A DNA stretch of 64,000 nucleotides from Undaria pinnatifida. Taxonomy: Eukaryota > Sar > Phaeophyceae > Laminariales > Alariaceae. How positions within the stretch are numbered: position 1 is the first letter of the stretch; each line of letters begins with the position of its first letter. Made by a program: the position numbers and the translations under genes. The notes beneath the pieces were generated by a model that made no database searches, was not told the DNA's origin, and was given only the letters and a program-made list of their open reading frames with translations. Below, piece after piece: positions 20,751 to 63,860 of this stretch. The DNA is taken from NCBI GenBank assembly GCA_012845835.1, contig JABAKD010000029.1, forward strand, positions 11,618,524 to 11,682,523, read 5' to 3'.

Positions 20751-21199
20751 CTAATTCAGACATTGACAGAGAGGAAACGGGACGATATTTAGCGAATAAG
20801 TCGAGGACAGCATCCTTCTGCTTCTCAGTAGACGTGGAACTGGCGAATGCTTTAGACGGAGGACCTTCAAGGTCAGACCTGGCGCGGCGAACATCATATT
20901 CAATTAATCAGGGGTGACAACAGACGCCGTGTACAAATTGCCAAGATGCAAGCCTGGTAAAAGGCAGACACCATCACCAGATGGGTTGCATATTTGTACG
21001 ACAACAGAGCCATCAGAAGCACTCCACGTAGCTCAAGTACGGGCGACGAGAATGCTCTTGAAAGGTTCAAGTGTTGCGTCGTCGGAAAAATTCTTCCCGG
21101 TTAGTGCGAGGTTCGACAACAACAGTGCAGTCTTCTGGCGGTAGACAATCAGTGTAGGCAACAGCAAGGCTTTCCCATTCCGGTTTGAGGTTGACTCTC

Positions 21200-21931: not shown

Positions 21932-22222
21932 GCTTCGCTTGCGCGATGACCGCTAACTCTCAACCTCCTGTACTTCAGCCTGTGGGGGAGGGACGACACG
22001 TAATTCAGACACACTTGCCACACGTAACAGCTTCTTTGCTGTACCGTGAGGACGGGCACGGTACCTAGGCACGACATAACTACGATGACGGACGGGGACA
22101 CGGGGGACGACAAACTCAGAGGCAAAAACGGCTACCGACGACGTGGAGAGTTTCCTCTTCACGTCTTTCTTGGCTACAGAAGACGACCGTACTGTTTCAG
22201 GCGCTACAACAGCAGGGCACCC

Positions 22223-28446: not shown

Positions 28447-28640
28447 GAGCCGACGGAAGAAAATGCAGAATTCTTTCACGATACAATTGAAGGCACAAAC
28501 CGTAGTGGGGAGGGGGGGGGGGGGGGGCGCTATGTGACGCATGATTTGAGTTGCTACTGGGAGGGAGAGCGAGAGTAGTGCGAAGATATTAAATGGGATG
28601 AAGAAAAATAAAAATAAAAATAAAAATAAAAATTGTATTA
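28447..28640 (+). mobile_element. 5'-truncated copy of SINE family b with (TAAAA)n tail
   Basis: The sequence from GACGGAAGAAAATGC through CGTAGTGGGGAGGG and CTACTGGGAGGG.GAGCGAGAGTAGTGC matches the 3' parts of the copies at about 55270-55410 and 58400-58550. It ends in an AAAAT/TAAAAA microsatellite (28604-28635), as expected for a retroposon tail. The tRNA-like head is absent. Confidence 0.6.
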
Positions 28641-30507: not shown

Positions 30508-30587
30508 ATGGCGGTCACACCTTTCGAAAAGCCCGAGTTTTACAACTTCCCTCCTTTCTTCACTCTGCAGCCTGTGCTAGCGACCCG
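30508..30587 (+). CDS. VPS25 exon 1
   Basis: Starts at ATG 30508-30510 (MAVTPFEKPEFYNFPPFFTL) and ends two bases into the Arg codon. The donor is CCCG/GTGAGC. This ATG is chosen because it opens the frame just before the conserved FPPFFTLQP motif, which mediates contacts with VPS22/VPS36. A frame-preserving upstream extension is not needed for family length. Confidence 0.9.
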
Positions 30588-33500
30588 GTGAGCGGATGCA
30601 TCCTCCTTCTTGATGTGCGGCGTATCTCGAATCCAAGCTTAGCCCCTTGCATAAAAAAAGTCTGCCTCATCTGCGATAGATTCACACAGCTGGTCGTACA
30701 CCCGTTGGCAGTGATCGTTCTCCAGAAGACTCGCTATACTGACTTGTACCCCAATTGCCTTGACCCATTCGTTTTCGCCACTGCTGAAGAGAAAAACAAT
30801 TGCGATTATGGTGCGACATGGTCCTGCGATGGCACCGCTCAAGAAAAGAGTATGTGTTTGAATGGAAAGACTGGCCACTGTGGGAAAACCCCGCGATAGG
30901 ACGAAAGCTAAGCGGTGCTGGTGCGACAGCGGTGGTCGAAGAACTTATTCGTACAGGCCATGCAGAGTGGAATGATGCAGGAAAGTCTATGGTCACCCTC
31001 ATGTGGCACAGCGCCGGAGAAATCGCGGCCAAGCTGTTCGACTTCGTGAGGAAACACGACATGGTCGGCAGTGTTTTCACCGTCTACGAACTACACCAAG
31101 GCGACGAGGTCCTGGGAACGGTGAGCAGCATTGAGCAGTGAGGACTGAGGGCGTGTCCCCCCAAAAGGCATTGAACATTGGAACATTGGAACGTTTGGAA
31201 CCTGGAATGGAATAATATTGGGCTTGCTGCTGATTGGTTATCAAATCGATTACTTGTAGGTTCCTAGAGTCCCCACCCCGATCGTGAAGTTTGGAGGATG
31301 ATAAAATCCCAGAGTATACCGGTACTACAGCAGTAGTTAGTTAAAAATGAACGGCCCCGTTGGAACGAGATCGACGGCTACTGATTGGTGTTGGGAGTGT
31401 TGCTTCAGACGCTACTGGAGACCCACGAGGGTATGGGTGCACATGGGATGACGTAAAACTCATGGAATACATGTGGACGCTGTAGGGCTCGCCCGCGGCA
31501 GGAGTCACGCGACACAGCCACGGCCTGACCAGGAGGCTCGTGAGGCAAGAGACCGGGTTGTGAACGAGACTCTGGCCATATATTTCGGGCAACAGCGTGG
31601 TACCGATGCTCGTAGAAATTTCTTGGAAATTTCAGTAGTCCTCGCCGAGCCACCACCACTTGTGTTGCTTTCCCCACACAACGAAAAGCGCTGTACTCGT
31701 ACAACCGACAACGTCAACTATTATTGATACCGGGGTTTTGTCAAAAACAGCCCCGCACAATTCCCTCTTGGCCATTCAGCGCTCTGTGCTCTTTCACCGG
31801 TGCCGTGCTCCTCACCGAACTCACACCACGCCCGTAGGAGCCCCGCCTAGTCGTTATATATAGTCTGCTATGTAGTTGGTTTGGCCTGTCTTGCTAGATA
31901 GGATAAATCCGGGGCGCCGCGGCAATATAGTGTATCGTTTGTGCCGTTGCAATGCTCCCAGCAGTCGCACCGCCAGTTTAGGCACTTTTCACGGTCACTG
32001 TCGCGGTGAAGTTGATGAAATTGCGTAACATTCGCAGTGTGCTCGTTCACACCGGCAGAGAAGGGTTGGAAGTTTCCAGGGCTCACTTTGGTATGCCTTT
32101 TTTAGGTTGGTATCGTTTACCGCGGTATCCAGCTACCACGGTAATGCACGGTAATTATTGGATGGTAACTGGCCACCCTGGTACTCATTGGCACAGGAAC
32201 CGGCCACCACGGTAATGCGCAGTAATTTTTGGATGGTAACTGGCGACCTTGGTACTCATCGGTACAGGAACCGGCTACCACGGTAACACGGTAATTTTTG
32301 GATAGTAGCTGGCCACCTTGGTACTCATTGGTACAGAACTGGCCACCAAGGTAGTGGACATTTATTTTTTGTATTTCTACAGCGCGTGGCATGCCCACGT
32401 TACAACGTATGCCTAAACAAGGAATATCGTGCGTGGGTCCGTTGTTTGCAAACCTCAAAAGCAAGCCTAGTCGTGCATAATACAGGCAGACGGGTCGAGT
32501 CTCGCAGCCAAAAAGTAACAGACGACGAACCAAAACCTACACCCAAAGCGACGCCAGCAGTCTCGACTACTTCAATTCAATAACCATAAATCGTGAAGAT
32601 ATCGCCACCCTCTTCTAGACTTCTATGGACAAATAATGCAAAATTAAACCTCGCAAACTCGTGAAACACCTGCCAAACCCACGAGCTCTTGGCACTTTTG
32701 CTAGAAGCCTGTGAGACAATGGTGACTGTGACCGGTGTGCCGTTTGCTCGAGCGGAGCGTGGTAGCTCCGAGACCACCAAGCTGCGGCACAGCACGCTCG
32801 TCAGCAGCAGGTGTGGCTGCAGCACCACCGCCACCTCCGGCGGAAGGAACCACTGCGTCAGACGAAACCACCCACCCTACTAGCACCACTGCCGGGGCAG
32901 CTTCGACTTCGCTCATGACTGCTTGCCCTCGGTTGCGCGTGTTTCGGTTGTGCTTGTGCTTTCGCGCTTTTGTGCTTTCAGCGCGCGCGGGTGTTAGTCC
33001 GCTCCAACAAAAAAAATGACAGGTTTGTTTCCAGTAAAAAAAAAAAACATTCAGAAAAGATAGAACAAGAAAAAAAAAAAACGTATAATCGCCACTAAAA
33101 CGGTATAGTCGCCAAGAGAGAATTGAACTCTGAGGCTAGTCCATCAAAATTGACCCATCAAAATTGACCGCCTCACCCACTGTCGTAGATGATCATATCG
33201 AAATGAGGTGTCTGCGATAATTCACTTTACCTTACTGTACGGTAATTGGGAACTACGTTTGCGCGGTATTTGGTTGGGTGGTAACGAGAACCCAGATGGC
33301 GATATTTGCACGGTAATTGTTTGGATGGGAATGGGATAACATGAGTTTCTCGATAACGATTTGGATGGGAATGGGAGAACGTGATTTGCTTGCTAACGGT
33401 TTGGATGGGAACGGCAATTGCGATTTATCACGGTAAACGTACCGTTTACCTATTACCGTGGTTTTACCGCAGTAAAATTACCGAAGTGAGCCCTGGAATT

Positions 33501-36500
33501 TCCGATTTTTGTCACCGACGCCGCAATCGCTGGAGACGTGCCTCAAAAACCAACGAAATGTGGACAAAAAAACACTGCGTTGCAGTTTGGTAGCGCTAGA
33601 TAACAGAAACATGTTTTTTTAAATATAATCGTACATACGTACTAGCACTGATCCTCGTTACCACAGTAAAAAACAAATAGTGCCACAGAGTATAAGGAAA
33701 AGAAAATCCAACGACCTGGAACCACATTTTCAAATTTCAGCGACGCTGTCGCGGTGCTTATAGGCCACCAAAACTGCTGCCGCCTTGCCACGCTGTAGTT
33801 AGAGCACTTAAGACCCCATCCCAGGGTGGTACATTTTTCGATTACAGTGGGTACCCCGATTTAAGAGCGCCCTGTAACAAGCCGAAACAAGCGCTCTTAA
33901 CTATGCATTGCTCTTATCTGTAGTGGGAATTATATAGCTCTTAGTACGAGCTGGGCCAGCCAAGAAACGGATAAACCATCCCAGAGTCGTATCTCGTGAA
34001 CCACTGCGAATTGAGCAGAACTAGAGACACCGCTGTAATCGGCCAATCATCGTGCTTACGCAGAGCCACGTCGCCACGTGCTTGGGCGTCATTTGACAAA
34101 AGGACCAAGAGGTCTGAAAATATACTTGAATTTAGTGTTATTAAATGGACTTTTGATACCGTTTTTCTTGCGGCGGAATACATACCGCGTACAAAAACCT
34201 CCAGCCTGCAGCACTATGCTGTTGTTATAATAGACACCTTGCGTGTCGCACCACTCGCGGCGACATGGCGTCAAGCTCGAGCGGCGCTGGGGATTGGAAG
34301 AAGACCTCCAAGCCTAGGGTCGATTTCGATAAAAGAGCTGGGAAATGGAGGCTGACGATTAACTACACGCTCAGCTCAAAAAGCCGACCTTGATGGTGCA
34401 TTCACAGTGGTGTAGCACTCGAGAGGAGACGGAAGCAATGCTACCGTGGTGGCGGCTGAGCTAGGAGCAGGGGCACAAAGCCAAGAACGTCGACCCGCCC
34501 ACGCCTCCAGACCGACAACAAAGGTCGCGCTCCGCGCGTACGGCAGGATCGGTGGCTGCTACTCTCCCGCCAGGCGAGTTCAATTCCGTGTGGTATCACA
34601 GGTGTCTTGGTTCGTTCCAATTTGTGCGTAATTGCGCCGCCTTTCGTTTGCGGCTGTTCGACGTCGTCCCTGCTGTCTCGCGTACGAGCTGTACCGTCCG
34701 GCAAGATGCCTGCATGCAGATTTCCGTCAGTACAGTAGTGTTGTCCACAGACGTGTATGTTGCTGTCACACTGCTGTTCTGTGTACCTGTATGATAACGG
34801 TATCAGTCCTGCAGCTTGCAAAATCCGGCAAGACGTCTGTGTGCAATTTTGTGCCGGTACAGCAGTGCTGAGCACATATGCTTATGTTGCTGTGACACTG
34901 CTGTTGTACACGTACGTACCTGTGTGAGAATGGTACCGGTCGTGCTGCTGTTTGTGCGACATAATTACACCCCCTGCAAGGATGGGGCTTCCCCTCACTC
35001 TACGGTTGGCGGTACTCGTACATTCTACTGCAACGAACATGTGATGACCACACCCATGTGCCAGCTATATTGATGTCAGGACAAGCACCAGTGGCAACAT
35101 ATATCTTAGGCGTACGTTGTGCTTCTACTGCTGTGTCTGCCTGCACTGCTCTGCACGATTGCCAGTGCGAACATATGCCTGTACTGCTGCTATAATTACT
35201 GCTGCTGTTGGTGCATGGCTTGATTGTTCCCCCCGTCCTCCCCGTCGCTTGCCGACACAGCACAGATAAACCTCGGAATAGCTTGCACCGGCTGAGTGGC
35301 ACGCCGGAACGCGCGTTCACGAGAAAACGAAGCGAAGAAGCTGACATGACACGTGGGAAATGGATGGAGTCGACGCTCCTGAGCGATCGAGACAAGCGGT
35401 GTTTATCGCGTGCATGGAGCAGGCGTGAAGAGATGTTGGCGAAGCAGTATACTCGTACAGCACGGAAGTTTCAGCTCGGGCGTCGATAATTTGAACGGCA
35501 ATGCATTATTTTTCGCGACCTGTCATCAGGACCTATTAAAACACATCGCTCGGGCGCATAATAAATCCTTTGTAATATTCATCTACGAGATGCGAGTACG
35601 GATGAGTTCTCGTACTCGTAGCATCGCTGCACTACGTGCTGCAGAGGTCGCCTACCCATCCTTAGAATATGCCCGAAAGGGTGGACCCGAAAAACTGCGA
35701 TGCCCCGCTCAATTTCGCGAGTTTCGATCTAAAAATGTAATCTCACTTTTGAACTGCGTGTGCAAACAAACGGAAGACTTTACGGAAGACTCGCCTTTTT
35801 TTTCGGACAAGTTATGACCGCTTTTGTATTTTTTCGGATCGGTTTATCGGTCATATCTCTTAAACAAAGAAAACAAACAAAAAAGGCGAGCTTTCCGTTT
35901 GTTGCTTGGTGCACGATCAACACCGTGTCCAAAAATCACATCCCAATACGTAATATTGAGCGGGGCATCGCCAATCAACCAGGAAAAATTACGCCTTGGC
36001 TGGCCCAGCTCGTATAGGGGGAATATGCCGACTTGACCGATCTTATGCCATCAGTGCTTTCATCCTGGGCGCTCTTAAATCGGGGTACCCACTGTAACTG
36101 TAACGCTAAAGTTATGGCCGAGCTGCCGAATATCATACACAAATACCAGGGGGCTTCGCCGCGGCGGGCTGCAGCCCGCCTTGCCTCCGCGCATGCCCGT
36201 AATTTTCGAGGATGCATGGCAGATATTATGAGTATAGGATTACAGGTGGAATGCGACAGCACTGCCAAGGGGTACATTCAAATATACATTTTTTTGAATA
36301 AAGAGAAACAAACACTGGAATCAGATGCAATAAACCACAGCAACAAATTGCGTCATCCGGCACACGATGACGAACAACAACAGCAGCAGCCCCCGCACAA
36401 CTTTTATGTACGTGTAATTCCAACAACAGGAGCGGCAGCTGCGGCATCGACAACAGCAAGCAGCTTTTCCACGATAATAATATCTGTACGAAAATAGGTT

Positions 36501-39500
36501 CACTTTGCTTGGAGCCGATACATAAATATTAAAAAAAAAGAGGGGGGGAAAAACTAAATAGTAAAGTAAAAGAGGATCGGATAATGTACACGCCAAGGCT
36601 CGAACCCAAAGGGAAGAAAACAAAGAAACTAACTTGAAAATATGACTGAGTTCATCGAGACTTGCGGCTAACGATTAACAATCGTTCGGGGCTACCCTTC
36701 GAGCTACTGTTGTACGATTACTATTGGGATAAAATGTTGTGTTCTTACACGAACGACTACACATTTGACATGACGCAACATAAATTTTGCAGAAAAGACA
36801 CGATTTTGCAGGGGCTGTCACGCGACGAAGCGAGCACGGCCGAGGCCGCCCCCGGCAGAGTCGTGAGAGGCGAGCAAAGTGAGGCACGTCTTGGAAATAG
36901 CGTACCGAGAAGTGGGCTTCAGCTCGTATTATCTCGAGGACGGCTCCAAACCTGGTCTGAATCGGGCTTCTCGATCGCTGAGACGACAGGGCCAACACAG
37001 CAGGAGCGGCAGTTCGACAGCAGCAAGCAACAGTTTACAGTCAAATAATATGCATCAAAAACGGCGGCGTCAGTCCAACAACAAATGGCAAGCCGTGCAA
37101 GAACACCATACATACATGCAGTAACAGCAGCAGCAACGCCGTACAACTCTTCTGTGCGTATAAACCGATAAACAGCATGCTGCAGCAGCGGCAGCACCAG
37201 TAGTACAACAGCAAACAGTATCCAGTGTAATGTGCATAAATAATAATACGTTCACTTTGGGCCGGTACCCGAGACGTATAGAATACAAACAAAGGAATGA
37301 AAACGAAAGTGAACAAAAAAAGAGTAGCAGAATGTAGGATACTCATCGAAAGTCGAACACAAACGGGAGGAAAAAAAAAGCGCACACAATTCCAAAAGAA
37401 GGCAAGCAGTAGCAGCGACTGTCCATCGACAAACGGCAAGCCGTAGAAGTACAGCATACACATGTAGTAACAGCAGCAACGGCGCACAACTCTTATGTGC
37501 GTGTAAGTTCAACAACAGCATGCTGCAGCAGCGGCAGCACCACCAGTACGACAAGCAGCAAGCAGTAACCAGTGCTATACGCATAAACAACAATATGTTC
37601 ACTTTGGGCCTGTGCCCGGTACGTATAGAACCAAAAAGGAGGGAAGCAATCCAAAAATAACAAAAATGGGGTAGCAGAATATTGGATACATATTGAGGCT
37701 CGGAACACAAACAGGAGAAGAACGAAAACATTGGAGTGTTTGCGAAAGTGAGTTTTTATAATTTTACCTTCCCGAAAAAACACCGAAGGAAGGATTTGAG
37801 GTACAATCTTGAAAAAAGGGCAGAAAAATACTTTAGCGAAGGTAGGATATTGACAAAATGTACGGTACATTTTTGCTCTCCACATCATTGGCTTCCAAAC
37901 ACCGAGCATCTTCCATGCCTCGCACGCACCACCTGCGCTGCTTGCTGTACAAAACACGACAGCCTCTGGGAGCACAGAGGCTCGAGAGGTGTAGCTGGAG
38001 TATGACGCGACAAGCGGCGTTGGATTGAGCCAGCGGGTCGCCAGCGGACTGCAGGCGGCCCGGTGCTACAGCAGTACACTCTCGCCCACAAGGTGTCAGG
38101 ATGAGTCGTTCCAGAATGGACTACTCGCACTCGTTCTCGTGACAGCGTGATTGTAGCGTAATTCCACCACGCTGCGGTAGCAGCAGCAGCAGCAGCTGTG
38201 GCGGCGACGCGCCGCCACGGTCCATACGTCGGGGCGCCGGGCGTGCTCGGAGTACAGCCCACCGGCGCGGTGGCGCGCGTAGGCCGAGCGCGGCAGCTGC
38301 TGCTGCAGCAGCAGCACCGGCGAAAAGAATAGCCGGTCCACAAATCGAAACATTCAAAAATGGAAGCTGTTGCTGCTAGTGGCGCTGATGCTGTTTTTTT
38401 TGTTGCTCAAGCTGACGCTGCTGCTAGCTGCCGCTAGCTGTGCTGCTACTCGCGGTCGTGGGATAGCGGCGGCGCCACCTCGGTCAAGTGTGCATGGTTG
38501 CTGGGCTGCCGTTGCTTCTCGTACGTACGCTTTTTTTTTGCTTTGCTTCTTTTTTGGTTTGCCGGGTTGGCGCACATCCCCACGTCCCTCCTCAATTTCG
38601 GAGGCGTCGCCTGCAGGATTTTGTTTACCTCTTGCGCAAGTACACTTAAATCTTGGTGGGAAGGCAACTCACTTGTTTCAGCGGAAGGAAAGTAAATTTG
38701 TAAAAATATACATCCTCGAACACTCCACTACAAAGAAAGAAAGAGTATAAGTGTTCACGGCAAGCCTGGAACCCGTGACTGGTGAATACACCCCGGCGGG
38801 ATCGGGAATGTCGAGCAAGGTGAGTCACGTGCAGGAAACAGCGCGCCGAGAGGTGGACCTCAGCTCGGGTTATCTCGTAAGACGGCTCAAAACCTAGTCT
38901 AAAACGGAGACTTCGGCTGCTCTCGTGCAAGCACCGGCACAATTATACATGTATTCAGTACACTGGTAGAGGTTGTTGCAGACCTGTATTTTGGCCTAGT
39001 TTGGCGCATGTTATTTTTTTTTGTGGGCAAAGCAACACAGGTGCGACGGCAATATCACAATTTCTAGATTTGTCCCGAGGGTACCACTTGGATGCCTAGC
39101 ACCGTCTTCTGTGAGGCTTGCCTTGCGATATAATTGCGTGTAAAGCTGCTCTTTGTGTCAGAAGTACTCGCTGCCCACGTGATGTCACCCCTGCCCTAGA
39201 GTCGAGCTGCACGGTCTCGCCGCAAAAGTCAGTTGAGCTATTTTCTGTTCGGGTCGGTTGCCCAGAATTCACCCGTTCACGTTGTACACAAAACAGGTTG
39301 GATTGGAAGTAACGAATGCGAACGGCCTCGTTCCATTCCATCCGTTCCAACGAGGTAGAAATCGCCCTGGGCACTGAGCACATCAAAAGAGCCACCCGTT
39401 CGGGCACTTTGCGCCGTTTTTTGGCTCTCGGCAGTTGCATGATCGGGTCCGCCAATACCAAATACAACTATTAATAGAGTAATTTTGAACAAAAAAAACG

Positions 39501-54500: not shown

Positions 54501-57500
54501 CCCGGTATCGCACTGTTAGGTGTTTTTTTTCGCCGAGAAGACTCCTTGGAGAAATATTATAGGCTGTGTGTGGATGGCATGCTTTGTTGTTGCTGTGGTC
54601 CCTGACTCCGTTGCTGTGGTCGTTTGCCGGTTAAGTGCAAGCGGTCGTGTTGGTACGTAACTGACGAATAAGTTTGTGTTGCTTCGTACTTGACGTGCTC
54701 CGTGCTGCTGATTGCAGATTAATCATCTCTTCTAGTGAGTTTTTTTTTTGGCACACTTTTACTTTCCAGCTTCTGGACATGCAAGCTGTGGTCACAGGTG
54801 TCGTCCTTCCCTTCCCCCCCCCCGATTATTGCTTTCTTTTTTTTTGCGCATATGTGGTTCAGCACCCACTGATCGTCGATTTTCCATCGAGTGTTGCTAA
54901 CTCACGCTCTCGCGCTTTCCGCAAGTCAATTAGTGCACAAGAAAAAGTCCCACGAAACTTTTTACGAGCACGCACTCGGGGGGATTCGAACTCACGAAGC
55001 TGACGTATACAAGGCTCGAGGACACCCTGATACGCCACCGTGGCAGTGAGTGATATAGAGCCGGTCGCCCTGGTGGTCTAGTGGGGTTACACTTAAATAC
55101 TACTACTATTAATACTATAGTCTAGCGTTGGTCCTTGAGTTAAATAGCCACCGTTGTGAGCTTTGTTGGCTTTATTTATTTGCAGAAATAAATGGGGAAA
55201 AAAGGATCAACTAACTGCTGAAATCGCCAAGCAGCGTGGGTAGATACAATTCGACGCGAATCGACGAGGGAACAAAAATGCTTAATTCTTGTCGCGATAA
55301 AAATTAGGGCAGGTACCGTAGTGGGGAGGGGGGAGGGGAGCCCGCTATATGACCCCGGATGTGAGTTATACTACCGGGAGGGCGAGAGTAATGCGAGCAT
55401 CACAATAAATGGGATGGGAAAAAGAACATAAGTGAAGTGTACTTCGAAGTATTACTGCTGCTGTAATAATACGATACCCAAGCAAGTTGCACCGATCGAC
55501 TCGATCTGGACTGACGGCTGTATTATGCAATTGCTCCATGCACAACTTCTCTAATCACAGACCAGTGTGAGATGATAGTCATTGAACTTGCTGAACTTGT
55601 TAGTGAGTGATGGTTTCCTCTATCCACGAACCCCGGCCGAGCCAATAAATCGAAGGTTAGGTTACACTGTGCGGGGTGGTATCGAGACAGGAGGTCAAAT
55701 GAAATGTCCGCGTACCGCGGGGTTGGGGTATACGAATAAAAATTCAGCAGTAGCGCAAGTGACCCCATTTTTTTCTAGTTGTAAATACCTTGAAGGGTTT
55801 CTGAACCGGGGTTGGACCCTGTTCTGTGGTGCTGGCGTTGTATACGAACCTCAGCTAGCTGAGGCTTCCACACCGTGCGGTGTGGTGTCGACACGGTAGG
55901 TCATCGTTATTGTTGCCGCGTTTTTGGAGCTGTAGAGATTCGGGGGATTCATAAATCGGGGATGGGACCCTATCTTCCCCGTGTGCGACGGAAATGCCTC
56001 CAATTGATGGGCCTCTATTCGCCTAGGACGGCGTTGTGGAGCTCGAACCAATTGGCGATTAGCCAACGGGATTGGGGTTTTATCACCGTACAAGGTGGTG
56101 TCGACCCGAGAAAGCTCGGTTTGCTTCCCCGGTTGATGGAAGTTTTAGAGATGTGGAACGACCTCTGGACCGGGGATGGGACCCTATGTCCTCCCGAGGT
56201 GGAGCTGGCTCAACATACGAACCATGGCCAATCAGAAAATCGGCCTGTGGGGTTGGGATTTCCACACCGTGCGGACAGGTATCAACCCGGATGATATCCG
56301 TGTTCGTCCCCGGGTTGTTGGAGTTGTAGGTGTGTGGATGGATTCCGATCCCGGCATGTGACCCTATCGTGCTCGGGTGACGCCTACTTCGTGTATGAAT
56401 CCTGGCCAATGAGCGATCAGACAAAAACGACATGTTTTTATTTTCGTCTATAAAAACTCGAGTCTGAAAGTCTTAACGGTTAAATTGTAAGCGCTGTAGT
56501 CGCGTACTGTATGTACAAGAAGTGAGCGATCTACACAGCTAGCAACAAGCAGCAGCATTGCAATAGCATCCGAGGAGTTGAATGACGAAGGCAGCCATAC
56601 CACCGTGTTTCGCGCCTGGAACAACGTCAGCACGTCTCTCCACGATCAGACAACACACAGTCGATCTGGGAGGCTCGGATCTAGATGATACTATTATACG
56701 GAAGTATCATGCATTGTACATTTCAGAAGCTGGCTCAGTGCGCGCCTCTCAGTGGCTACGAAGAGAACACGCAGCGGACATGGTCACTCACCTTACTGGC
56801 CCCGAATGCTTGATGGAGTAAAAATATCATAACAAACGCACTCGACACGTTTCGTCGCCAGACTAAAGGGTCAGTCGGCGTGTGCTCGGATTTACCAGAT
56901 CGAAATCTCATGAATGAAGCTCGGAATCGGATTCACTTGAAAAACGGTAGCTATTAATAGTAGTACATTGTTATGATTGTTAGTCTATATCGAACTCTTG
57001 GCATTACCTTACATACTGTACGCGCAGACTAGGATTTGTGTGTGGTGACTCTTTTTACTTTACCAAGTACTGAATCGAACAATTCGAAATGCTGCCCTGC
57101 CCCACCCATGCGGAGCCCTTGTACATATATATGATGATTCTTTTTGGGGGGATTCGGTCAGGAGTTTTTTCGTCTCGGCCTCAGTATGGGATTCTCGGAA
57201 CTGGCATTTCTGGATCAAATCGCTTCGTTCGAGCGCCGTCTTCGGGGGGCGGCTCCAACGCCCCTCGCCCTGCCTTAACCTTTCCGCACCTCGACGTGAA
57301 CGCGGATGGAGGCTCAGTGAGACAAGCGAGAAGTGTAAAAAATTGTACCAGGTATTTTGAGCGGTACTCTCGAGTTATTCTCCGGATCTTGATGTACATG
57401 GAGAGATTGATGAAAAATAACTTGGCAAGACATTACTTCCAAATTGGCGTCATATTTCGTCCCAAAACAAATAATACTTCCTGAAAAAAAAATCCCCATG

Positions 57501-60500
57501 GTACCGCGGTAGGTATCAGAGTAGTAGTGCATTTAATTATTGAATTTCGGTAGGTACGTACGTACATGGATATAGACGCGGCAAGCGCATGCATGACGAA
57601 CACGAGAAGGTAAGTGACACGATTACTGCGCCAGAAAAAGCAAAAAGCCACACAGCAGCATTGTACGAGTGGCTGCGTCCCCGGCCTCGAGCATGGTAGT
57701 TCGGGCACATCGACATAGTTGATGCTCGTGCAAGTAATATAGGTATAAGTAAGAGCACACACACTGACTGATGCTCTATTGCACACACGCTTTTTGTCTG
57801 ACTTATAGCATGGACGGGGAGGGTATACCAAAAAACGGGGAATAACTTTTCGACATGAAAAACAAGGGGGAAATTCGTTCCTGTTCATGTTGTTAAGCGG
57901 CGCCACGCGAAGGTCGTAGTTGTAGCAGTAGACGGTATCCACGCACGAAACCAGTGGCATGCATTCGTCCCGGCATCGCCTCGATGGGTGGTTATTTTCC
58001 CCAAGAAGACTCTATGGTGAAGTATAGGCGGTGTGGAAGGGGTACTTCGTTGTTGCTGTGGTGCCCCTGTCTCTCCGTTGTTTTGGTCGTTTGCCGCGGC
58101 CAACTGGAAAAAAAAACGGTCGTGTTGGTACGTAACTGGCAAATAATGTTTTGTTGCTTCCTACTTGACGTGCTCCTTGCTGCTGATTGCTGATTGATCA
58201 TCTCTAGTGAGTTATATAGAGCCGGTCGCCCCGGTGGTCTATCTAGTGGTTACCTTCGTATACTACTAGCGTTATTCCTTGAGTTCATATCACCACCGTT
58301 GTGAGATTTTTTACGTTATTTGCAGAACTGCAAGAATAGGATCAACTAACTACTAATGAGAACGCCTAGCAGCGTGGGTAGATACAATTCGACGCGAATC
58401 GACGAGGGAAGAAAATGCTGAATTCTTCTCGCGAAAAAAAATTAAGGCATGTACCGTGCGTAGTGGGGAGGGGGCAGGAGGAGCCGCTACGTGACCCCTG
58501 ATCTGAGTTATGCTACTACTGGGAGGGCGGGCGAGAGTAGTGCAAGGATGGATGGAAAAAAAACAGATACAAAATCGAGAACAACTTTTCAGACAAGCTA
58601 TACAACAAGTACTTAAAGCAGTACAGCGGGGTTATTCCGATTCAAAATCACCATGTGACAAGTCGGAGCAGGAGCTCATTGATCTTATCTGAGTTGTTGA
58701 CAATATATGGCTGTGTTGTATGCCGGGACATGGCGATTTGACCGTTCTTATTATGTCCCGAATTGCTTTATATTTGACGCTCTGGGTACCAACTGTATAG
58801 ATTCATCCTGATAAGGTCGAGCGTTTTGTACGAATTGCGGTCAAATCGCGAATATTTGCCCTACTGAGTAGTATGCAAGAAAACCCGCGAAAATATTAGC
58901 GAGCTTAGGTTTTACCCAATGAGCGAATGAAAACGACACACGACGCGTATGAAAATACGCGGAAGTGTGGTGAGCTAAAGCGTTATTTTTCCCCATCCGC
59001 CGGAGGATAAAAAAAAAAAAAAAAAAAAAAAAGAAAACGGATTTTCAGCAAATGTTTTCGGTTTCACATAAGCGACGAGACGTGATTATAGTGTTGAATG
59101 ATTATTCGACCATTTCGCGAGTCAAGTACGCAGTGTTTCGGCCTCATTTCAGGATTTTTTCCACGGTTATTATGCTCGAGTTGTGCCAGTCTCTAAGTTC
59201 CACTTTTTATGCCGTTTTGATTTGAACACCTCACTTTTGTTTGAAATTGTACTTATAACCGGGGGGGGCTGAATCTTGGATACAAATGGCTCTATAAATT
59301 GTCCATTCATATTGCGTTTGGTGCTGCTGTTGTTGCCGTTCAATGACAAGTGTTTCTCTCATCCTCATTTTGAGCGTGCTTGCTCGGCACGCCAACCTGA
59401 TGCAAGCTTAAAATCGCTTTTTTGTGCCACCTATCATGCAAATAGCTGGTCGAATTGCGTTCGCATTGCAAATGTTTGCCGAATACGTAAGTATGCGAGA
59501 AAACCCGAGTTTATGTGAGAAAACCCGAGTTGATCGAAGCAATTGTGAGCTTTTTAGGTCAAGGCCTACCAGCCAATCACGAATAAGCCAATGGGGTCGG
59601 GGTTGACACGCCGTGCGGGGAGGTATCGACCAGAGATCATTATAGTTCCCGCTAGTTAGTTCCCGCGTTGTTGGAACTGTAGATATTATGAGGAATTCTG
59701 AACCGGGGATGGGGCCCTATCTCCCCCGTGTGCGACGGAACTACCCCCCATTGGTTGGTGAGCCTCTATCATCCTCCTAGGTAGGGTGTGGGGCGGCGCC
59801 GTGGAGCTCAAACCAATCAGCGATTTTCGCCGGGAGTTGGGGTTTCCACGCCGTGAGGGGCGGTGACGACCCGAGATAACTCGGTTTTATGCCCCGGTTT
59901 GTCCAACTTTTAGAAATATAAAATGACCTCCGCACCGGGGATGGGACCCTATCGTCCCCGGGTGGACCTGGCTCTATAATATACGACCCCAAACCAATCA
60001 GAGATCGGCCGGTAGGTGGGGTTGGGGATTATTTCCACACTCTGCAGGGAGGTATCAATCCTGGTGATATCCGTGTTCGTTCCCGGGTTGTTGGAGATGT
60101 ATTTGTGTGTGTGGATGGACTATGATCGTGGGATGGGACCCTATCGTCCCCAGATGACGGTTAATTTCTGTACGATCCCCTGCCAATGAGCGACCAGCGA
60201 TCAGACAAAAAGTTCATACCAGGAAATACATGTTTTTTTTTTTTTTTTCGTCTAAAACTTGAGCCTGAAACTCTTAACTGCCAATTTTTTAGTGCATTGC
60301 TATCGCGTATTACTAATACTCTATCTACCAGATAGCAACACGTGGCAGCATTATAATAGCATTCGAGGAATTGAATGACGAAGGCAGCGACACCGTGTTT
60401 CACGCCTAGAATACCGTCAGCAAGTCTTCCACGATCAGATATACACACACAGACAGTCGGTCTGCGAGCCTCGGATCTTGATACTATCATGCATGGTGGC

Positions 60501-61944
60501 GCAGAAGCTGGCTCAGTGCGCGCCTCTCAGTGGCTACGTAAATAAAATGCCGCATACATGGCCACCCCCTCGCTGGCCCTGGATGCTTGGTTGAGTCAAA
60601 ACATGTAGCAACGCACTCGAAACGTCTCTTCGTGGCCAGACTAGAGGGTCAGTCTGCGTGGGCTCGGAATCGGATTCACGCAAGAAACGGCAGAAGTAAG
60701 TAGTCCACTGTTAATCTATATCGATATCTTGGCATTACTTTACATTCTTCACGCGTAGACTATGTGTTGTGTGGTAACGGTATTGAATTGAGCAAGTCGA
60801 AGTGCTGCCCTGCCCTACCCGGAGCATGTATGTATGTATATGTGTGTACGGAGTATGTATCTGGTACTTCGTGTACTGGTGCGTAGATATTTTATTTCAA
60901 CTGCGAATTGCGTAAATATTGTATTCGAACCCCGAACTTCCGCGAACAGAGGCCTAGGCCTGTCCTGGCTCAAATCACTACTGTAGTCGGCATGGTGCGA
61001 GTACTCTGACAAGATATATTGCAGTTGTACAAAACAAGCAGCATATGTTCTGTCACATTCAACGTCCATTTTTCAATATGCTTATACGGCGCTCCAGCCG
61101 TAGCTGGCTCTAAAGGTCTAACGAGTCGAGTCATAGCATGGACATGGTTCTCGTTTAGTAAGGCGATTCATACACCAGGTATACAGTTATGAATACGGAG
61201 TAGTAGGTTAGCGTACATCGTACGGCTTCACACTCTGACTGGACTTCGACGATCATTTTTCACGTTGCTAACAGTACTTTGTTTAGAATTTTCTTCGAGC
61301 TTCTTGACGTTCTCCCCTCCACCCCCCGTGATGCCGCTATAACTCTAGACTTGATAGAAGAAGCCTTCGTGTTTTAGTCTTGCCTTACTACGTATTTCGA
61401 TCTGGAGCTCTATTTGATTCCTACTACTCGTAACATTAATAGTGTTAGTACGATGTATGTTGACGTATTTTTTTCTAATTGTCGTTTCCTATATTTGCGG
61501 TGGTCTTTTGGCATGCAAGTTCCACGATATAGAATGTGTGTCATTCGCAATACAGCGGGCGACCTCGCGGTTGAGAACGAGAAGCCTCGGTGGTTGTGTT
61601 AACCGAAAGGCGCCGTTTTTGTTGAGGAAGAGTACGTGTTATGGTTGAAAGATGTTGAAGATATGCCCGAACAAGGGTGGGCGACAAGTGTCTTCGCTGT
61701 CGAAGTTGTTTTTTTTGCTAACATTAGGCGGTTAACAATGACTGAATATTAGCCTCTATTTTGCCGTCCTCTTGAAGACTACAACTAGGCTTTACTTTCC
61801 TCTGCTTTTCCCCTTGCACAGGACTTTTTCGGGATGGACGAGGGTTTTTTTAGGAAAGCTCTTTCTGTCTTGGAGGATGAAGGGCGAGCGGTTATCTTCA
61901 AGGGGGCAACATCGGAAGAGGACGGAGTAAAATTCTTGGCTTGA
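30508..61944 (+). CDS. VPS25, ESCRT-II subunit (three exons, one giant intron)
   Basis: VPS25 is the small subunit of the cytosolic ESCRT-II complex (with VPS22 and VPS36), which acts at endosomes in sorting ubiquitinated membrane proteins into multivesicular bodies and recruits ESCRT-III through its second winged helix. The exons join as 30508-30587, 30790-31120 and 61822-61944, giving 177 residues against 176-179 in animals and plants. The N-terminus has the family's FPPFFTLQP motif. Residues about 20-95 form winged helix 1 (REKQLRLWCD, PLWENPAIGRKL, GHAEWNDAGKS, LMWH). Winged helix 2 continues with SVFTVYELHQGDEVLGT, then from exon 3 GMDEGFFRKALSVLEDEGRA and the terminal DGVKFLA. Splice phases match at both joins. 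Odd point: intron 2 would be 30,701 bp and full of mobile elements. Confidence 0.85.
30588..30789 (+). other. VPS25 intron 1
   Basis: 202 bp, donor GTGAGC, acceptor TTTTCGCCACTGCTGAAG. The join creates CGA (Arg), giving ATREKQL, exactly as in plant and animal VPS25 (ATRQKQL, DTREKQI). Normal size, in sharp contrast to intron 2. Confidence 0.85.
30790..31120 (+). CDS. VPS25 exon 2
   Basis: Open throughout and encodes most of both winged helices, from EKQLRLWCDMVLRW to YELHQGDEVLGT. It ends in phase 0 at ACG/GTGAGC, the same donor hexamer as intron 1. Reading through the donor would stop after five more codons (VSSIEQ then stop), leaving a protein that lacks the conserved last 40 residues, which supports real splicing here. 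Confidence 0.92.
32077..33495. mobile_element. hAT-like element with CACGGTAA-type subterminal repeats
   Basis: The ends are CAGGGCTCACTTTGGTA (from 32077) and its inverse, TTACCGAAGTGAGCCCTG (to 33495). Flanks GAAGTTTC and GAATTTCC match at 6 of 8 positions, in line with an old 8-bp hAT target duplication. The left arm is about three copies of a ~68-bp unit (32125-32345) with ACCACGGTAA and GGTACTCATTGGTACAG; the right arm (33220-33480) repeats GGTAA and TTTGGATGGGAA motifs. On the minus strand 32834-32577 contains KSSWVWQVFHEF, faintly like the start of a BED zinc finger, which hAT transposases often carry. Internally deleted, non-autonomous. Confidence 0.7.
34680..34930. repeat. Two ~125-bp tandem units inside the pogo-like element
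   Basis: Both units contain CCGGCAAGA.G.CTG, then GTATGTTGCTGTCACACTGCTG-like sequence and end in TGTGTACCTGTATGATAACGG-like sequence (first unit 34700-34800, second 34825-34935). They diverge by many substitutions. No coding support. Confidence 0.65.
35697..35974. mobile_element. ~278-bp foldback (MITE-like) palindrome nested in the pogo-like element
   Basis: The left arm starts GCGATGCCCCGCTCAAT and the right arm ends with its inverse (ATTGAGCGGGGCATCGC). Further inside, CAAACGGAAGACT...CTCGCC pairs with GGCGAGCTTTCCGTTTG. The two arms pair imperfectly over almost the full length around a centre near 35835. The target duplication is not clear. It lies wholly inside the pogo-like element, so it either inserted there or is an internal foldback. 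Confidence 0.65.
36095..37730. repeat. Diverged ~360-bp repeats with CAGCAG microsatellites
   Basis: Units at about 36370-36530, 37090-37290 and 37455-37650 share GCACAACT.TTATGT.CGTGTAA, CAGCATGCTGCAGCAGCGGCAG and TTCACTTTGGGCC. Between units are A-rich spacers. 36164-36181 is a perfect 18-bp palindrome (GGCGGGCTGCAGCCCGCC). Frames here are Cys- or Leu-rich artefacts of CAG/CTG. Confidence 0.7.
37731..40320. other. Intron interior without a confident feature
   Basis: A perfect 20-bp palindrome GCTGCTGCTGCAGCAGCAGC sits at 38296-38315. Several minus frames look partly protein-like: 38667-38446 (basic, VLAQEVNKILQATPPKLRRD), 39720-39277 and 39467-39096. None matches a family and none has clear splice partners, so I do not call genes. 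Confidence 0.3.
40325..40560. repeat. Dispersed repeat R-A, uninterrupted copy
   Basis: Runs AGCTGTGAGATCGACCAAAA ... TGAAGGATACAGGTCGGTGACT ... CGGAAACTGTATAAT without the SINE that splits the copy at 7790-8345. It documents the pre-insertion state of that site. Confidence 0.75.
41065..41825. repeat. Low-copy repeat pair, copy 1
   Basis: Two blocks, 41065-41290 (GCGATTTCGTTAAAGAACA region) and 41565-41825 (GTCAAGATGCGTCCACTGGT to GACGGTTTCATATCCATAT), recur in the same order at about 46005-46225 and 47086-47345. The second copy has about 0.9 kb of other sequence between the blocks. No gene is recognisable in either. Confidence 0.75.
41985..42275. repeat. Two ~164-bp tandem units
   Basis: Both carry AACCCGGTA.(C)AGCACTCAGCTGCCGTA, GGAGCGTCTGCCCCAGTA and GTGTCTGATGCAAAACTGCA. 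First unit 41990-42105, second 42152-42270. Non-coding as far as can be seen. Confidence 0.8.
42430..43260. repeat. Dispersed repeat (cgtgctcgcacc family) and CAGCAG-containing units
   Basis: 42440-42650 (CTTCGTGCTCGCACCTTTAT to TTTTTTGGCCTTGGGCATAT) recurs at 50866-51060. The units after it (about 42770-42900 and 43080-43220), with ACAACGTT/CAACGCTACAACC and CAGCAGCAGCA, are relatives of the tandem units at 51.1-52.6 kb. So the two segments share a common ancestor repeat. Confidence 0.7.
43261..44210. other. Intron interior without a confident feature
   Basis: A 183-codon + frame (43421-43972) and overlapping minus frames are open, but the sequence matches no family and lacks consistent splice sites. 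Nothing else is seen. Confidence 0.3.
44215..44665. repeat. Two ~227-bp tandem units
   Basis: ATGAATGT.CGAGTCTCAGTG through GACTTTATCCAGAGCCCCTG and TCAACTCATTCAT.GATCCTG occurs twice, starting about 44282 and 44508, at well over 90 % identity by eye. This is a recent local duplication. Confidence 0.9.
44666..46004. other. Intron interior without a confident feature
   Basis: Contains a G run (44809-44835) and a CTCTCTCTCT run near 45869. A 158-codon + frame (45521-45997) is Ser/Arg/Leu-rich. The opposite strand near 45680-45950 has Glu/Arg-rich sequence resembling the repeats at 46148-46609. No gene call is justified. Confidence 0.25.
46005..47345. repeat. Low-copy repeat pair, copy 2 (with inserted segment)
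   Basis: Blocks 46005-46225 and 47086-47345 match the repeat pair at 41.07-41.83 kb in the same order. The ~0.9 kb between them is not in copy 1 and contains the gag-like remnant on the minus strand. Confidence 0.7.
46148..47090 (-). pseudogene. gag-like fossil with a zinc-knuckle remnant and charged repeats
   Basis: On the minus strand, near 46950-46915, the sequence resembles a gag zinc knuckle (KCQVYGHALAQC type), preceded by a VPHDTSVIRF segment as in retroelement gag proteins. Downstream, 46609-46148 is an open frame of 153 codons with two Glu/Gln/Arg-rich repeats of about 40 residues (NEQESLLRRAEDNMRARQM and NEKESLLGQTDNITRAGQM). The family could be an LTR element or a LINE ORF1. Broken in several places; treated as a fossil. 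Confidence 0.4.
47346..48280. other. GC-rich island and R-A fragment
   Basis: About 47770-47870 is a partial R-A repeat. 47890-48070 is a strikingly C-rich block (CCCGCCCGCTCCCGCACCC type) that opens three long frames on + and one of 165 codons on minus. With three + frames open at once, base composition explains them better than a gene. Confidence 0.4.
48281..48920. repeat. Diverged tandem units (CACCACCTCTCGKTGCC family)
   Basis: CGCCACCACCTC(T)..TGCC.CTGCTG through GTGAAGTGCCACT.TGGT and CGTTTGAATTT recurs at about 48285, 48597 and 48820. The segment TCTATGCGCGTGTGGCTGCTGTAGCTGA occurs at about 48212 and 48541 in the intervening sequence. Non-coding. Confidence 0.7.
48921..50865. other. 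Intron interior without a confident feature
   Basis: Contains short palindromes such as GGGACCAGGGGACGCTTGGGTCCC-like sequence near 50337-50360 and STRs, but no repeat with clear ends and no coding frame. One near-copy of the AGCGATTTCGGTA block is at 49872. Confidence 0.35.
50866..52610. repeat. Dispersed repeat plus about five ~220-250-bp tandem units
   Basis: After the 50866-51060 block shared with 42.4 kb, units start near 51170, 51408, 51730, 52090 and 52440. Each has GCCGCACAGCAGCAGCA(G), a CATGTATG/GTGCGCATG stretch, GTGTCCTCGCTATG.TGCTGCGGCGAGTTG and ACCATACC.CA...TTCTGCTGTGC. The spacing varies and other sequence separates later units. A 289-codon minus frame (51726-50857) crosses two units and repeats a ~69-residue block; this is most likely a by-product. 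Confidence 0.85.
52735..53100. repeat. Third, partial copy of the duplicated block's head
   Basis: GGGGGGATTCGGTCAGGAG through TCGTTCGAGCGCCGTCTTCG, CGGCTCCAACGCCCCTCGCC and the ..GGATCTTG..GTAT region matches the start of the block at 57130 and, more weakly, 54000-54190. It shows that the head segment has been copied at least three times in this intron. Confidence 0.8.
53155..53550 (+). mobile_element. Two copies of a short tRNA-like repeat (SINE family c)
   Basis: 53158-53275 has a tRNA A-box-like GGCTCAGTGGGTATAGTGC and a B-box-like GAGTACGATTCTCACC. 53437-53550 has CAGTGGGTAGTGC and GGGTTCGATTATCATC. Both continue with CATATTTG, AAGCGTGCGCGCTG and ATTATGAATGGTTAT-like sequence. The head is typical of Pol III SINEs; neither folds as an intact tRNA. 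Confidence 0.6.
53575..53830. repeat. Dispersed repeat R-A, uninterrupted copy
   Basis: AGCTGTGAGATCGAAGATTT to GCGCGGAAACTATAAAACCC, continuous across the point where the copy at 7.8-8.3 kb carries a SINE. Confidence 0.75.
53950..54005. repeat. Perfect 21-bp palindrome of a tRNA A-box
   Basis: Left arm 53950-53970 and right arm 53985-54005 are exact inverses around a 14-base loop. The right arm contains TAGCTCAGTGGGCAGTGCT, the consensus 5' part of many tRNAs, so two SINE heads meet head to head here. The duplicated block A begins at this point. Confidence 0.9.
54741..55044 (-). mobile_element. tRNA-derived SINE (family a), copy 2
   Basis: The same unit as 7888-8192: minus-strand head with TGGCGTATCAGG and GAGTTCGAATCCCC, tail T-run (on +) at 54741-54749. 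Flanked by the 7-bp direct repeat AGTGAGT (54734-54740 and 55045-55051). Block B keeps the single, uninterrupted AGTGAGT at 58206-58212. Confidence 0.9.
55060..55440 (+). mobile_element. SINE family b, copy in block A
   Basis: The head GGTCGCCCTGGTGGTCTAGTGG is close to the 5' half of eukaryotic tRNA-Glu (CCCTGGTGGTCTAGTGGTTA type). The B box is degraded. The body contains CAGCGTGGGTAGATACAATT and ACGCGAATCGACGAGGGAA, and the 3' part has GTAGTGGGGAGGG and GAGGGCGAGAGTAATGCGA. Not a functional tRNA. Confidence 0.65.
55590..56430. repeat. ~200-bp tandem repeats with CCAAT motifs, block A
   Basis: Units share CCGGGGATGGGACCCTAT.., AACCAAT or GCCAATCAG/GAGCGAT, then GGGGTTGG...CACCGTGCGG.GGTATCGACCCG and CCCGGGTTGTTGGAG. 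The GGGACCCTAT anchor is at about 55963, 56174 and 56356, with a diverged one near 55814. CCAAT in every unit is notable but may be incidental. Confidence 0.8.
58221..58570 (+). mobile_element. SINE family b, copy in block B
   Basis: GCCGGTCGCCCCGGTGGTCTATCTAGTGGTTACC head with a small TCTA duplication compared with block A (head quoted in part: GGTCGCCCCGGTGGTCTA). The body and 3' part match the block A copy. It was present before the duplication, unlike SINE family a. Confidence 0.65.
58690..59560. other. Block B-specific segment with hairpin and poly-A
   Basis: 58994-59008 is CATCCGCCGGAGGAT followed by a 24-base A run (to 59032), the same hairpin-plus-A pattern as the 39-bp insertion in the gypsy LTR. 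This suggests that the ~300 bp before it may be a retroposon body. AGAAAACCCGAGTT is duplicated at 59499-59530. No gene. Confidence 0.45.
59560..60190. repeat. ~200-bp tandem repeats with CCAAT motifs, block B
   Basis: The GGGATGGG.CCCTATC anchor is at about 59707, 59939 and 60134. CCAAT motifs are at 59573, 59588, 59812, 59994 and 60181. Same units as in block A. Confidence 0.8.
60831..61740. other. 3' end of the giant intron, no feature
   Basis: About 900 bp of apparently unique sequence between block B and the branch/acceptor region. Short AT-rich frames only. Confidence 0.4.
61822..61944 (+). CDS. VPS25 exon 3 (C-terminus)
   Basis: Preceded by a long pyrimidine tract and GCACAG. Encodes 40 residues and TGA (61942-61944): DFFGMDEGFFRKALSVLEDE, then GRAVIFKGATSEEDGVKFLA. 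This matches the last third of VPS25 from plants and animals (LQGID..IL.RALK.LE.KGK, F..GT...GVKF). Phase 0 fits exon 2 exactly, and the sum is 177 residues. No other VPS25 exon lies nearby, so it belongs to the gene 30.7 kb upstream or is a displaced exon. Confidence 0.88.
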   Translation, partial: DFFGMDEGFFRKALSVLEDEGRAVIFKGATSEEDGVKFLA

Positions 61945-62885: not shown

Positions 62886-63365
62886 TGTACATTGTCTTTT
62901 TGGCGGACCCCTGCGGCAGAAGCACCGCGGCAGTGTCCACGGACCTCCACGGCATTCCACGGCCATGTCCACGGCGTTCCACGGGTAACCGCGGACACTC
63001 CACGTGCTACCGCGGACCTTCCACGGGCTACCGCGGACCTTCCACGGGCTTCACGGACATTCCACGGACATTCCACGGGCTTCCACGGAATGCCGAGGCA
63101 AGTAGGGAACACCGTCGAGGCCCATGGCAGTAGCCATGGCAAGCTCCCCGGCGAGGTCCACGGCAATCTCCACGGCAACTTCCCCGGCAGCACCCACGGC
63201 AACGCCACTGCCACCCACGGAAACATCCACGGAAGCATCCACGGCAACGCCCACAGACACACCCACGGAAACACCCACGGACTGTCCACGGAAACGTCCG
63301 CGGATATCCACGGATAGGTCCACGGAAGCACCCACGGCAAGACCCACGGCCACGCCCGTGGACAC
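62886..63365 (+). repeat. CCACGG-rich degenerate array
   Basis: The hexamer CCACGG (with CCGCGG variants) recurs every 6 to 18 bases, mostly at multiples of six, so both strands show long Gly/His/Ser-rich (+) or Trp/Pro/Val-rich (-) frames of about 190 codons. These frames are by-products. Confidence 0.9.
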
Positions 63366-63514
63366 CAGGTGTCTTACATAATTGTGTTTTTCAAAACCAT
63401 GGAACTAACCCTAACCCTACCCCATACGAAATACCGGTCGAAGTGCCCCCTACTAACATCACTGAGGCAAAATGGTTGGAAATGTCAAATAATGTGTATC
63501 GCTATCGGAGGATT
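63366..63514. other. Spacer with a short telomere-like motif
   Basis: 63405-63422 reads TAACCCTAACCCTACCCC, only two CCCTAA units. Too short to call an interstitial telomere. The spacer separates the two mirrored arrays. Confidence 0.5.
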
Positions 63515-63860
63515 GCCGTGGCAGTGGCCGCGGACGGGCGCGGATGGCCGTGGAAATTGCTACGGTTGGACGTCCGCGGAAACTGCCGTGGCAATTGCTG
63601 CGGACTTCCGCGCAATTCCGTGGTGATTGCCGCGTTGCCGTGGCAATAGCTGCGGATGGCCGTGGAAATTGTGGCAATTGCCGCGGACTTCCGTGGGTTA
63701 CCATGGTTGGTACAACGGGGTGTGCCACGGACAGAACCGCGGCACGTGCCATAGCCACAACCGTGGCATTTTTCCGTGGAAGTGCCATGAGCTGTGGCAC
63801 TTGCCGTGGAAACCCGCGGATTTCCACGGTAGCCCGTGGCAACACCCACGGAAGTTCACG
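63515..63860 (-). repeat. CCGTGG-rich degenerate array, mirror of 62886-63365
   Basis: The same hexamer in inverse orientation (CCGTGG, CCGCGG), so the two arrays form a large imperfect inverted repeat around the spacer, switching back to CCACGG after about 63815. The layout recalls the mirrored short-motif arms of the hAT-like elements above, but no terminal repeats were found. Confidence 0.8.

What the first reader, a model, noticed from the sequence alone, without database searches (positions are those of the whole stretch)
30508..61944. VPS25 split by a 30.7-kb intron
Exons 1-2 at 30.5-31.1 kb and the only matching C-terminal exon at 61.8 kb join in phase and give a full-length 177-residue VPS25. 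Both sides of intron 2 have good splice sites, and both introns use the same donor hexamer GTGAGC. A 30-kb intron in a ~530-bp gene, next to a 202-bp intron, would be extraordinary for an alga-like genome and shows how far a single intron can be inflated without loss of the gene.
Basis: partly seen in the sequence, partly recalled or inferred. Interest (0 to 1): 0.9.

Follow-up and report, generated by a model that had tools for sequence, protein, structure and literature searches.

The report
Brown-alga VPS25 with 30.7-kb intron
A small, conserved trafficking gene (VPS25) of a brown alga is interrupted in this sequence by a 30.7-kb intron that grew by duplications and mobile elements; this looks like the long end of intron sizes already known in brown algae rather than a new phenomenon.

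Summary
Exons 30508-30587, 30790-31120 and 61822-61944 join in frame through GT-AG introns of 202 and 30,701 bp into a 177-residue VPS25, which matches Pfam ESCRT-II, human VPS25 and Ascophyllum and Sphacelaria proteins at 86% and 84%. Exon 3 occurs once in the window; there is no N. In 20 of 20 relatives' fragments examined, exon 2 ends at the same place. The genome is a brown alga's.

None of 249 ORFs of at least 60 aa inside the intron has a convincing Pfam match. The intron holds an old tandem duplication (52.7-60.8 kb), retroposon-like insertions with target-site duplications, one a tRNA-type SINE, and local duplications. Some relatives appear to have a much shorter intron 2.

'Extraordinary' is not supported: Saccharina japonica introns average 1.8 kb, and introns of nearly 13 and 15 kb occur in two gene families. 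This is a long-tail case of a known kind. Contiguity and splicing could not be tested; the genome search did not complete.

The parts
30508..30587 (+). VPS25 exon 1 (ATG to ..LATR, 80 nt, ends after the second base of a codon)
   Evidence: a relative reads the same exon 1 and runs on past ..LATR into non-homologous sequence (P0091)
30588..30789 (+). intron 1, 202 bp, GT-AG
   Evidence: relatives' exon-2 ORFs enter at REKQL, the same point (P0009-P0012, P0016)
30790..31120 (+). VPS25 exon 2 (331 nt)
   Evidence: 20 of 20 unspliced relatives' fragments examined read VS or VR directly after the last exon-2 codon, i.e. a GT donor at the same place
31121..61821 (+). intron 2, 30,701 bp, GTGAGC...GCACAG; no recognisable gene found on either strand
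   Evidence: Pfam on 127 ORFs >=80 aa and 122 ORFs of 60-79 aa: 7 weak families, best E 0.0087
61822..61944 (+). VPS25 exon 3 (last 40 codons and stop)
   Evidence: 37 of 40 residues as in Ascophyllum
52747..57107 (+). copy A of an old head-to-tail tandem duplication inside intron 2
   Evidence: five blastn blocks of 70-92% identity with 57122-60820, in the same order
57122..60820 (+). copy B of the tandem duplication
52961..54048 (-). 1,088-bp piece in copy A only, with a run of T near its + strand start and AAGCGAGAAG on both sides; probable retroposon (inference)
   Evidence: copy B has AAGCGAGAAG once, at about 57323-57335; related pieces elsewhere in the window
54742..55044 (-). 303-bp tRNA-type SINE in copy A only: A- and B-box-like motifs, poly(A) tail, 7-bp AGTGAGT target-site duplication
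   Evidence: empty site in copy B at about 58206-58213; second copy at 7898-8184, 82% identical

Best explanation
This is an ordinary VPS25 (ESCRT-II) gene of a brown alga. Its second spliceosomal intron, whose position is shared by the relatives examined, has grown to 30.7 kb by accumulation of local tandem duplications (one of about 4 kb), retroposon-like insertions including a tRNA-type SINE, and decayed repeats. Shown: the reading frame, splice-site motifs, shared intron position, duplication, insertions with empty sites, and absence of a second exon 3 in the window. Inferred: that the primary transcript spans the intron and is spliced by the major spliceosome (probably by exon definition), that the assembly is contiguous, and that the gene is the only VPS25 of this genome.
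For: An in-frame 177-aa protein matches along its whole length. Exon 3 is unique in the window, on the same strand and in the right order and phase. Relatives have the same junctions: in 20 of 20 unspliced fragments examined, exon 2 is followed by VS or VR at the same place, and 5 of these 20 also show the entry at REKQL. P0008 carries exon 2 joined to exon 3, while P0048 shares the same first 89 residues and then reads into the intron, as expected for a transcript and a gene of one species. None of 249 ORFs in the intron has a Pfam match better than E 0.0087, while the same procedure found a retroelement in the flank, a positive control. Copy A / copy B blocks, and pieces present in A and absent from B with repeated target sites, show growth in steps.
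Against: No RNA or long-read evidence was available. The genome search did not complete, so the assembly could not be checked for a second VPS25 or another exon 3. Stop-to-stop ORFs in the intron are longer and more numerous than in shuffles (68 of at least 100 aa against a mean of 27.5 in 30 shuffles); I read this as repeat and composition structure, but small or fast-evolving nested genes are not excluded. ORFs under 60 aa were not scanned, nor were ORFs crossing the intron's ends. P0008 and P0048 both lack the first part of exon 2, and whether the P0008 contig is RNA is not stated.
Confidence: 0.86

Rival explanations
1. Assembly error: the gene is real but a misplaced segment was assembled between exon 2 and exon 3, so the true intron is shorter.
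For: Only one assembled sequence was seen; no reads. Some relatives appear to have a short intron 2: P0022 (exon 2) and P0110 (exon 3) both list a longest contig of 1,922 bases, P0011 and P0087 both 6,643 bases.
Against: No N in the window. G+C is 0.488 in the intron, 0.516 in the left and 0.547 in the right flank, no sharp foreign signal. Repeats of the intron recur in the left flank (7898-8184 and 54742-55044; 28451-28611 and 55265-55426). The internal duplication (70-92% identity) is more divergent than two haplotypes should be (recalled). An ORF of the intron is found at 100% identity over 94% of its length on contigs of at most 10,453 bases (P0093), so this sequence occurs in other records, though that does not test contiguity.
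Confidence: 0.08
2. Exon 3 is reached by trans-splicing, or belongs to a duplicated gene fragment, and the resident VPS25 uses another last exon outside the window.
For: Not excluded without RNA; the sequence beyond 64 kb and the rest of the genome were not seen (genome search did not complete).
Against: Exon 3 has a good pyrimidine tract and AG, the right phase, strand and order, and 37 of 40 residues as in Ascophyllum with no decay. No competing exon 3 lies in the window. Normal cis-splicing needs no extra assumption.
Confidence: 0.03
3. The segment contains nested genes (host or mobile-element genes) that account for part of its length.
For: There is an excess of long ORFs over shuffles, and the longest ORF, 294 aa, has 16 relatives besides its own copy.
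Against: No Pfam match better than E 0.0087 in 249 ORFs. The 16 relatives of the 294-aa ORF match 16-48% of it, carry no Pfam domain and no name, and the ORF lies in locally repeated DNA at 50.8-52.6 kb, which is how translated repeat DNA looks.
Confidence: 0.1

Closest known systems
VPS25, ESCRT-II subunit (Pfam PF05871)
   Same: Full-length match, 177 aa, exon junctions as in the brown-algal relatives examined
   Different: Nothing noted in the protein; only the length of intron 2 stands out
Long introns of brown algae, e.g. Saccharina japonica sulfotransferase (nearly 15 kb) and glutathione S-transferase (nearly 13 kb) genes
   Same: Very long introns in intron-rich kelp genes (passages of PMC7291590 and PMC10506224)
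   Different: About twice as long as the longest case I found, and in a gene of only 534 coding bases
Intron-resident transposable elements of Ectocarpus
   Same: Intronic elements are shorter and more degraded, with LINEs and non-autonomous elements frequent (passages of PMC12477816)
   Different: Here one 303-bp element has A- and B-box-like motifs; the passage seen says the origin of the 5' region of their possible SINE could not be determined

Membership tests
VPS25 (ESCRT-II subunit) | Pfam ESCRT-II domain over most of the protein | tested here: met
   PF05871, 131.3 bits against a cut-off of 27, profile 1-138 of 138
VPS25 (ESCRT-II subunit) | Sequence alignment with solved VPS25 over its whole length, including the N-terminal FPPFF stretch and the C-terminal domain | tested here: met
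   residues 5-175 align with 4-175 of 3cuq_C
VPS25 (ESCRT-II subunit) | Assembles with VPS22 and VPS36 and works in endosomal sorting | not testable with these tools
   no experiment; role recalled
Spliceosomal (GT-AG) intron | GT donor, pyrimidine tract and AG acceptor, in-phase joining | tested here: met
   GTGAGC ... CTTTTCCCCTTGCACAG, 177-aa frame
Spliceosomal (GT-AG) intron | Removed from the transcript in this species | not testable with these tools
   No RNA data for this genome; only a joined/unjoined protein pair of a relative, P0008/P0048
tRNA-type SINE (element at 54742-55044) | Pol III A and B boxes near the 5' end | tested here: met
   TGGCGTATCAGG and GAGTTCGAATC on the - strand; a pattern written after the element was seen hits only the two copies in the window. 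Box consensus recalled; ARAGORN called no tRNA in the window
tRNA-type SINE (element at 54742-55044) | Poly(A) or simple 3' tail and target-site duplication | tested here: met
   run of A at the - strand 3' end and AGTGAGT on both sides; one AGTGAGT in copy B
tRNA-type SINE (element at 54742-55044) | Many copies in the genome | tested here: inconclusive
   2 copies in 64 kb; the genome was not searched for further copies (the genome search tool answered none of my calls)

The most novel reading that the evidence does not exclude
Intron 2 of VPS25 was inflated more than fivefold in this lineage, from the few kb or less that it appears to have in two relatives (bounded by contigs of 1,922 and 6,643 bases), by an ordered series of steps: a ~4-kb tandem duplication, then a ~1.1-kb retroposon-like and a 303-bp tRNA-type SINE insertion. 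That SINE family, with Pol III boxes, may be undescribed in brown algae: my one search for it found no paper, and the one Ectocarpus paper consulted left its own SINE-like family unresolved.
Probability: 0.35. Interest if true: 0.3.

Novelty: new member of a known kind. Interest (0 to 1): 0.17.

Why it matters
It is a worked example of how a brown-algal intron grows in place while the tiny gene around it stays intact: comparing copy A with copy B gives the order of events. It is also a practical warning, since a gene finder with an intron cap below 30 kb would split or truncate such a gene. It does not change what is known about intron size limits.

Tried and rejected
Rejected: chance match of exon 3 (93.6 bits against 5.6 for the next hit); a second, nearer exon 3 in the window; an insertion carrying a recognisable protein-coding mobile element (249 ORFs, 7 weak Pfam families, best E 0.0087); an RNA gene in the window (Rfam at gathering scores, 0 matches; ARAGORN, 0); an unmerged haplotype as the source of the tandem copies (70-92% identity).

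Led nowhere: scans of viral contigs and genome contigs for VPS25 (9 and 12 pattern matches, none a relative); Rfam at a lax threshold on the SINE region (one match below its gathering score, E 0.33); a global alignment of the two duplicate copies (64% identity over 3,136 aligned columns), which misaligns around the insertions, so the blastn blocks are used; paper searches that found nothing or nothing on point. Of the papers I saw passages only. Passages of PMC12879055 and PMC12459048 had nothing on intron length. PMC12089773 says that genome growth in Sargassum is explained mainly by transposable elements and gives no intron lengths in the passages seen. The main brown-algal genome paper (Denoeud et al. 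2024, DOI recalled) is not held, so its intron data were not seen.

Dropped rows: the tree used 28 of the 92 relatives (close ones, cut to about 101 columns of exon 2); many forks are weak, among them the one that parts the window from Ascophyllum (82/85), so it is used only to say that the window lies among brown algae, nearest P0013 and P0014 (96/91). The exon-3 profile used 9 relatives; P0111 and P0112, which start later, were left out by its pattern. One search examined 20 fragments that I chose because they read past exon 2, not all such fragments. In the flanks only the 138 ORFs of at least 92 aa were scanned.

Full report
Observation. Exact limits are exon 1 30508-30587, intron 1 30588-30789 (202 bp), exon 2 30790-31120, intron 2 31121-61821 (30,701 bp), exon 3 61822-61944; the spliced 534 nt read as 177 codons and a stop. 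Both introns are GT-AG and both start with GTGAGC. The acceptor of intron 2 has a long pyrimidine tract (CTTTTCCCCTTGCACAG), while that of intron 1 (CTGAAG) is plainer. The window contains no N.

Identity of the gene. Pfam gives ESCRT-II (PF05871) at 131.3 bits over the full profile. Human VPS25 in 3cuq aligns over residues 5-175. In the protein collection 92 of 150 candidates match at E <= 0.001. The proteins of Ascophyllum nodosum (86%) and Sphacelaria rigidula (84%) also have 177 residues, and exon 3 shares 37 of 40 and 32 of 40 residues with them. A tree of 28 of these relatives puts the window among the brown algae, next to two unnamed sequences that are 95% identical over 101 residues (P0013, P0014; fork support 96/91); the forks that would place it more closely among named species are weak. 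I could not name the species. A kelp or near relative is a guess from G+C (0.488 in the intron, 0.516 in the left flank; 48.72% is printed for Saccharina japonica).

Junctions in relatives. Open reading frames of relatives show the same gene structure. In 20 of 20 fragments examined that read past exon 2, the residues directly after the last exon-2 codon are VS or VR, the translation of a GT donor; in two of them (P0010, P0025) a residue beside the junction differs (ET and GA instead of GT) but the place is the same. Five of the 20 (P0009-P0012, P0016) also show the entry into exon 2 at REKQL. P0091 reads out of exon 1 after ..LATR. P0008 runs from exon 2 into exon 3 without a break while P0048, identical over its first 89 residues, runs into VRAEHY. 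So the position of intron 2 is shared. Its removal in a relative is likely but not proved, because the nature of the P0008 contig (RNA or DNA) is not stated.

Length in relatives. The exon-2 protein P0022 and the exon-3 protein P0110 both list a longest contig of 1,922 bases, and P0011 and P0087 both list 6,643 bases. If these are the same contigs, which equal length suggests but does not prove, intron 2 is under 2 kb and under 7 kb in those two algae. Proteins that join exons 2 and 3 lie on contigs of at most 7,812 (Choristocarpus), 6,259 (Hapterophycus) and 17,321 bases (Sphacelaria), which bounds their introns too. The Ascophyllum (919,254) and Scytosiphon (65,756) contigs give no useful bound. 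Growth in the window's lineage is therefore likely, but its time is open.

Contents of the intron. I scanned the 127 stop-to-stop ORFs of at least 80 aa and the 122 of 60-79 aa lying wholly in the intron: seven Pfam families appeared, each in one ORF, best E 0.0087, about what chance gives for 249 searches. The same procedure on 138 ORFs of the flanks found retroelement domains (RNase H, integrase, reverse transcriptase, gag) at E down to 5.5e-30, so the method works. Against this, there were 68 ORFs of at least 100 aa against a mean of 27.5 in 30 dinucleotide shuffles. The longest (294 aa) has 16 relatives besides its own copy, matching 16-48% of it, without domain or name, and it overlaps locally repeated DNA, so I read the excess as repeat structure, not genes; this is an inference.

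How it grew. In a self-comparison (hits of at least 50 columns, E <= 1e-8) 11,392 of the 30,701 intron bases (37%) lie in repeats within the window, against 8,847 of 30,507 (29%) in the left flank, so the intron is not strongly unlike its surroundings. Its largest feature is a head-to-tail duplication: five blocks of 52747-57107 match 57122-60820 in the same order at 70-92% identity. Copy A has two pieces that copy B lacks. One is 1,088 bp (52961-54048), has a run of T near its start, and is flanked by AAGCGAGAAG, which copy B has once. The other is 303 bp (54742-55044), begins with a run of T, and is flanked by AGTGAGT, once in copy B. Read on the minus strand the 303-bp piece starts with A-box-like TGGCGTATCAGG and B-box-like GAGTTCGAATC and ends in poly(A): a tRNA-type SINE. 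A second copy (7898-8184, 82%) lies in the left flank, between two stretches related to the 1,088-bp piece. So the order is duplication first, insertions later. Smaller tandem duplications (for example 44217-44659 and 51192-51615) add to the length. Copy B has extra sequence of its own (57692-57884, and about 600 bp within 58550-59658) that I did not resolve. Mechanism, as inference: ordinary local duplication and retroposition into a tolerated intron.

Comparison with what is known. In the passages I read, average intron length is 703.8 or 740 bp in Ectocarpus, 530 bp in Cladosiphon and 588 bp in Nemacystus, 1,514 bp in Macrocystis and 1,203 or 1,816 bp in Saccharina japonica. Longest introns of nearly 15 kb among 44 sulfotransferase genes and nearly 13 kb among the 32 glutathione S-transferase genes of S. 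japonica are reported. [quoted passage not shown] With the S. japonica mean and an assumed log-normal width of 1.0-1.6, 47 to 545 of 106,257 introns would exceed 30.7 kb. The widths are my assumption, and at each width the model predicts more introns above 15 kb (0.45-1.7%) than the 1 in about 306 suggested by the sulfotransferase family, so the count may be too high. I found no printed case of a brown-algal intron as long as 30 kb in these searches, and the passages I saw give averages and a few gene families, not genome-wide maxima. The claim that this is extraordinary is therefore not supported, while the claim that it is a very long intron stands.

What remains open. The genome of the window could not be searched, and no reads or transcripts are available, so contiguity, expression, and uniqueness of exon 3 outside the window rest on inference. 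A misassembly that happens to place the one missing exon in the right order, strand and phase is unlikely; a misassembly that only changes the distance is the main rival.

Verdict. A correct and careful observation of an ordinary gene with a very long but explicable intron. Novelty: a new member of a known kind. On checking, confidence was set from 0.87 to 0.86 because the placement outside Ascophyllum is weakly supported and was taken out of the statement.

Noticed in passing
54742-55044 and 7898-8184: Two copies (82% identical) of a ~300-bp tRNA-type SINE with A/B-box-like motifs and poly(A) tail on the minus strand; the second lies between two stretches of another repeat. The Ectocarpus TE paper passage seen (PMC12477816) leaves the origin of its SINE-like family's 5' region open, so a clear Pol III-box SINE in a brown alga may be worth a look.
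   Followed up: partly
18687-23226 (- strand): Retroelement with gag, reverse transcriptase and RNase H domains in separate ORFs, 7-12 kb upstream of VPS25; integrase-type domains were also found among the 138 flank ORFs but not placed.
   Followed up: partly
5063-6665 and 11347-13030: A ~1.5-kb duplicated segment (76% identity) carrying GACCC-rich tandem arrays with a ~40-bp higher-order unit.
   Followed up: no
62936-63349 and about 63500-63850: Long stretches of degenerate CCACGG / CCGTGG repeats just downstream of VPS25, with low-complexity ORFs of 213 and 205 aa on opposite strands.
   Followed up: no
25731-26847: Tandem array of a ~206-226-bp unit, about 5 copies, with AGC/AGA runs.
   Followed up: no
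53950-54005: A 56-bp inverted self-match (89%) near the right end of the 1,088-bp insertion, i.e. a near-palindrome, which a plain LINE-type reading does not explain.
   Followed up: no
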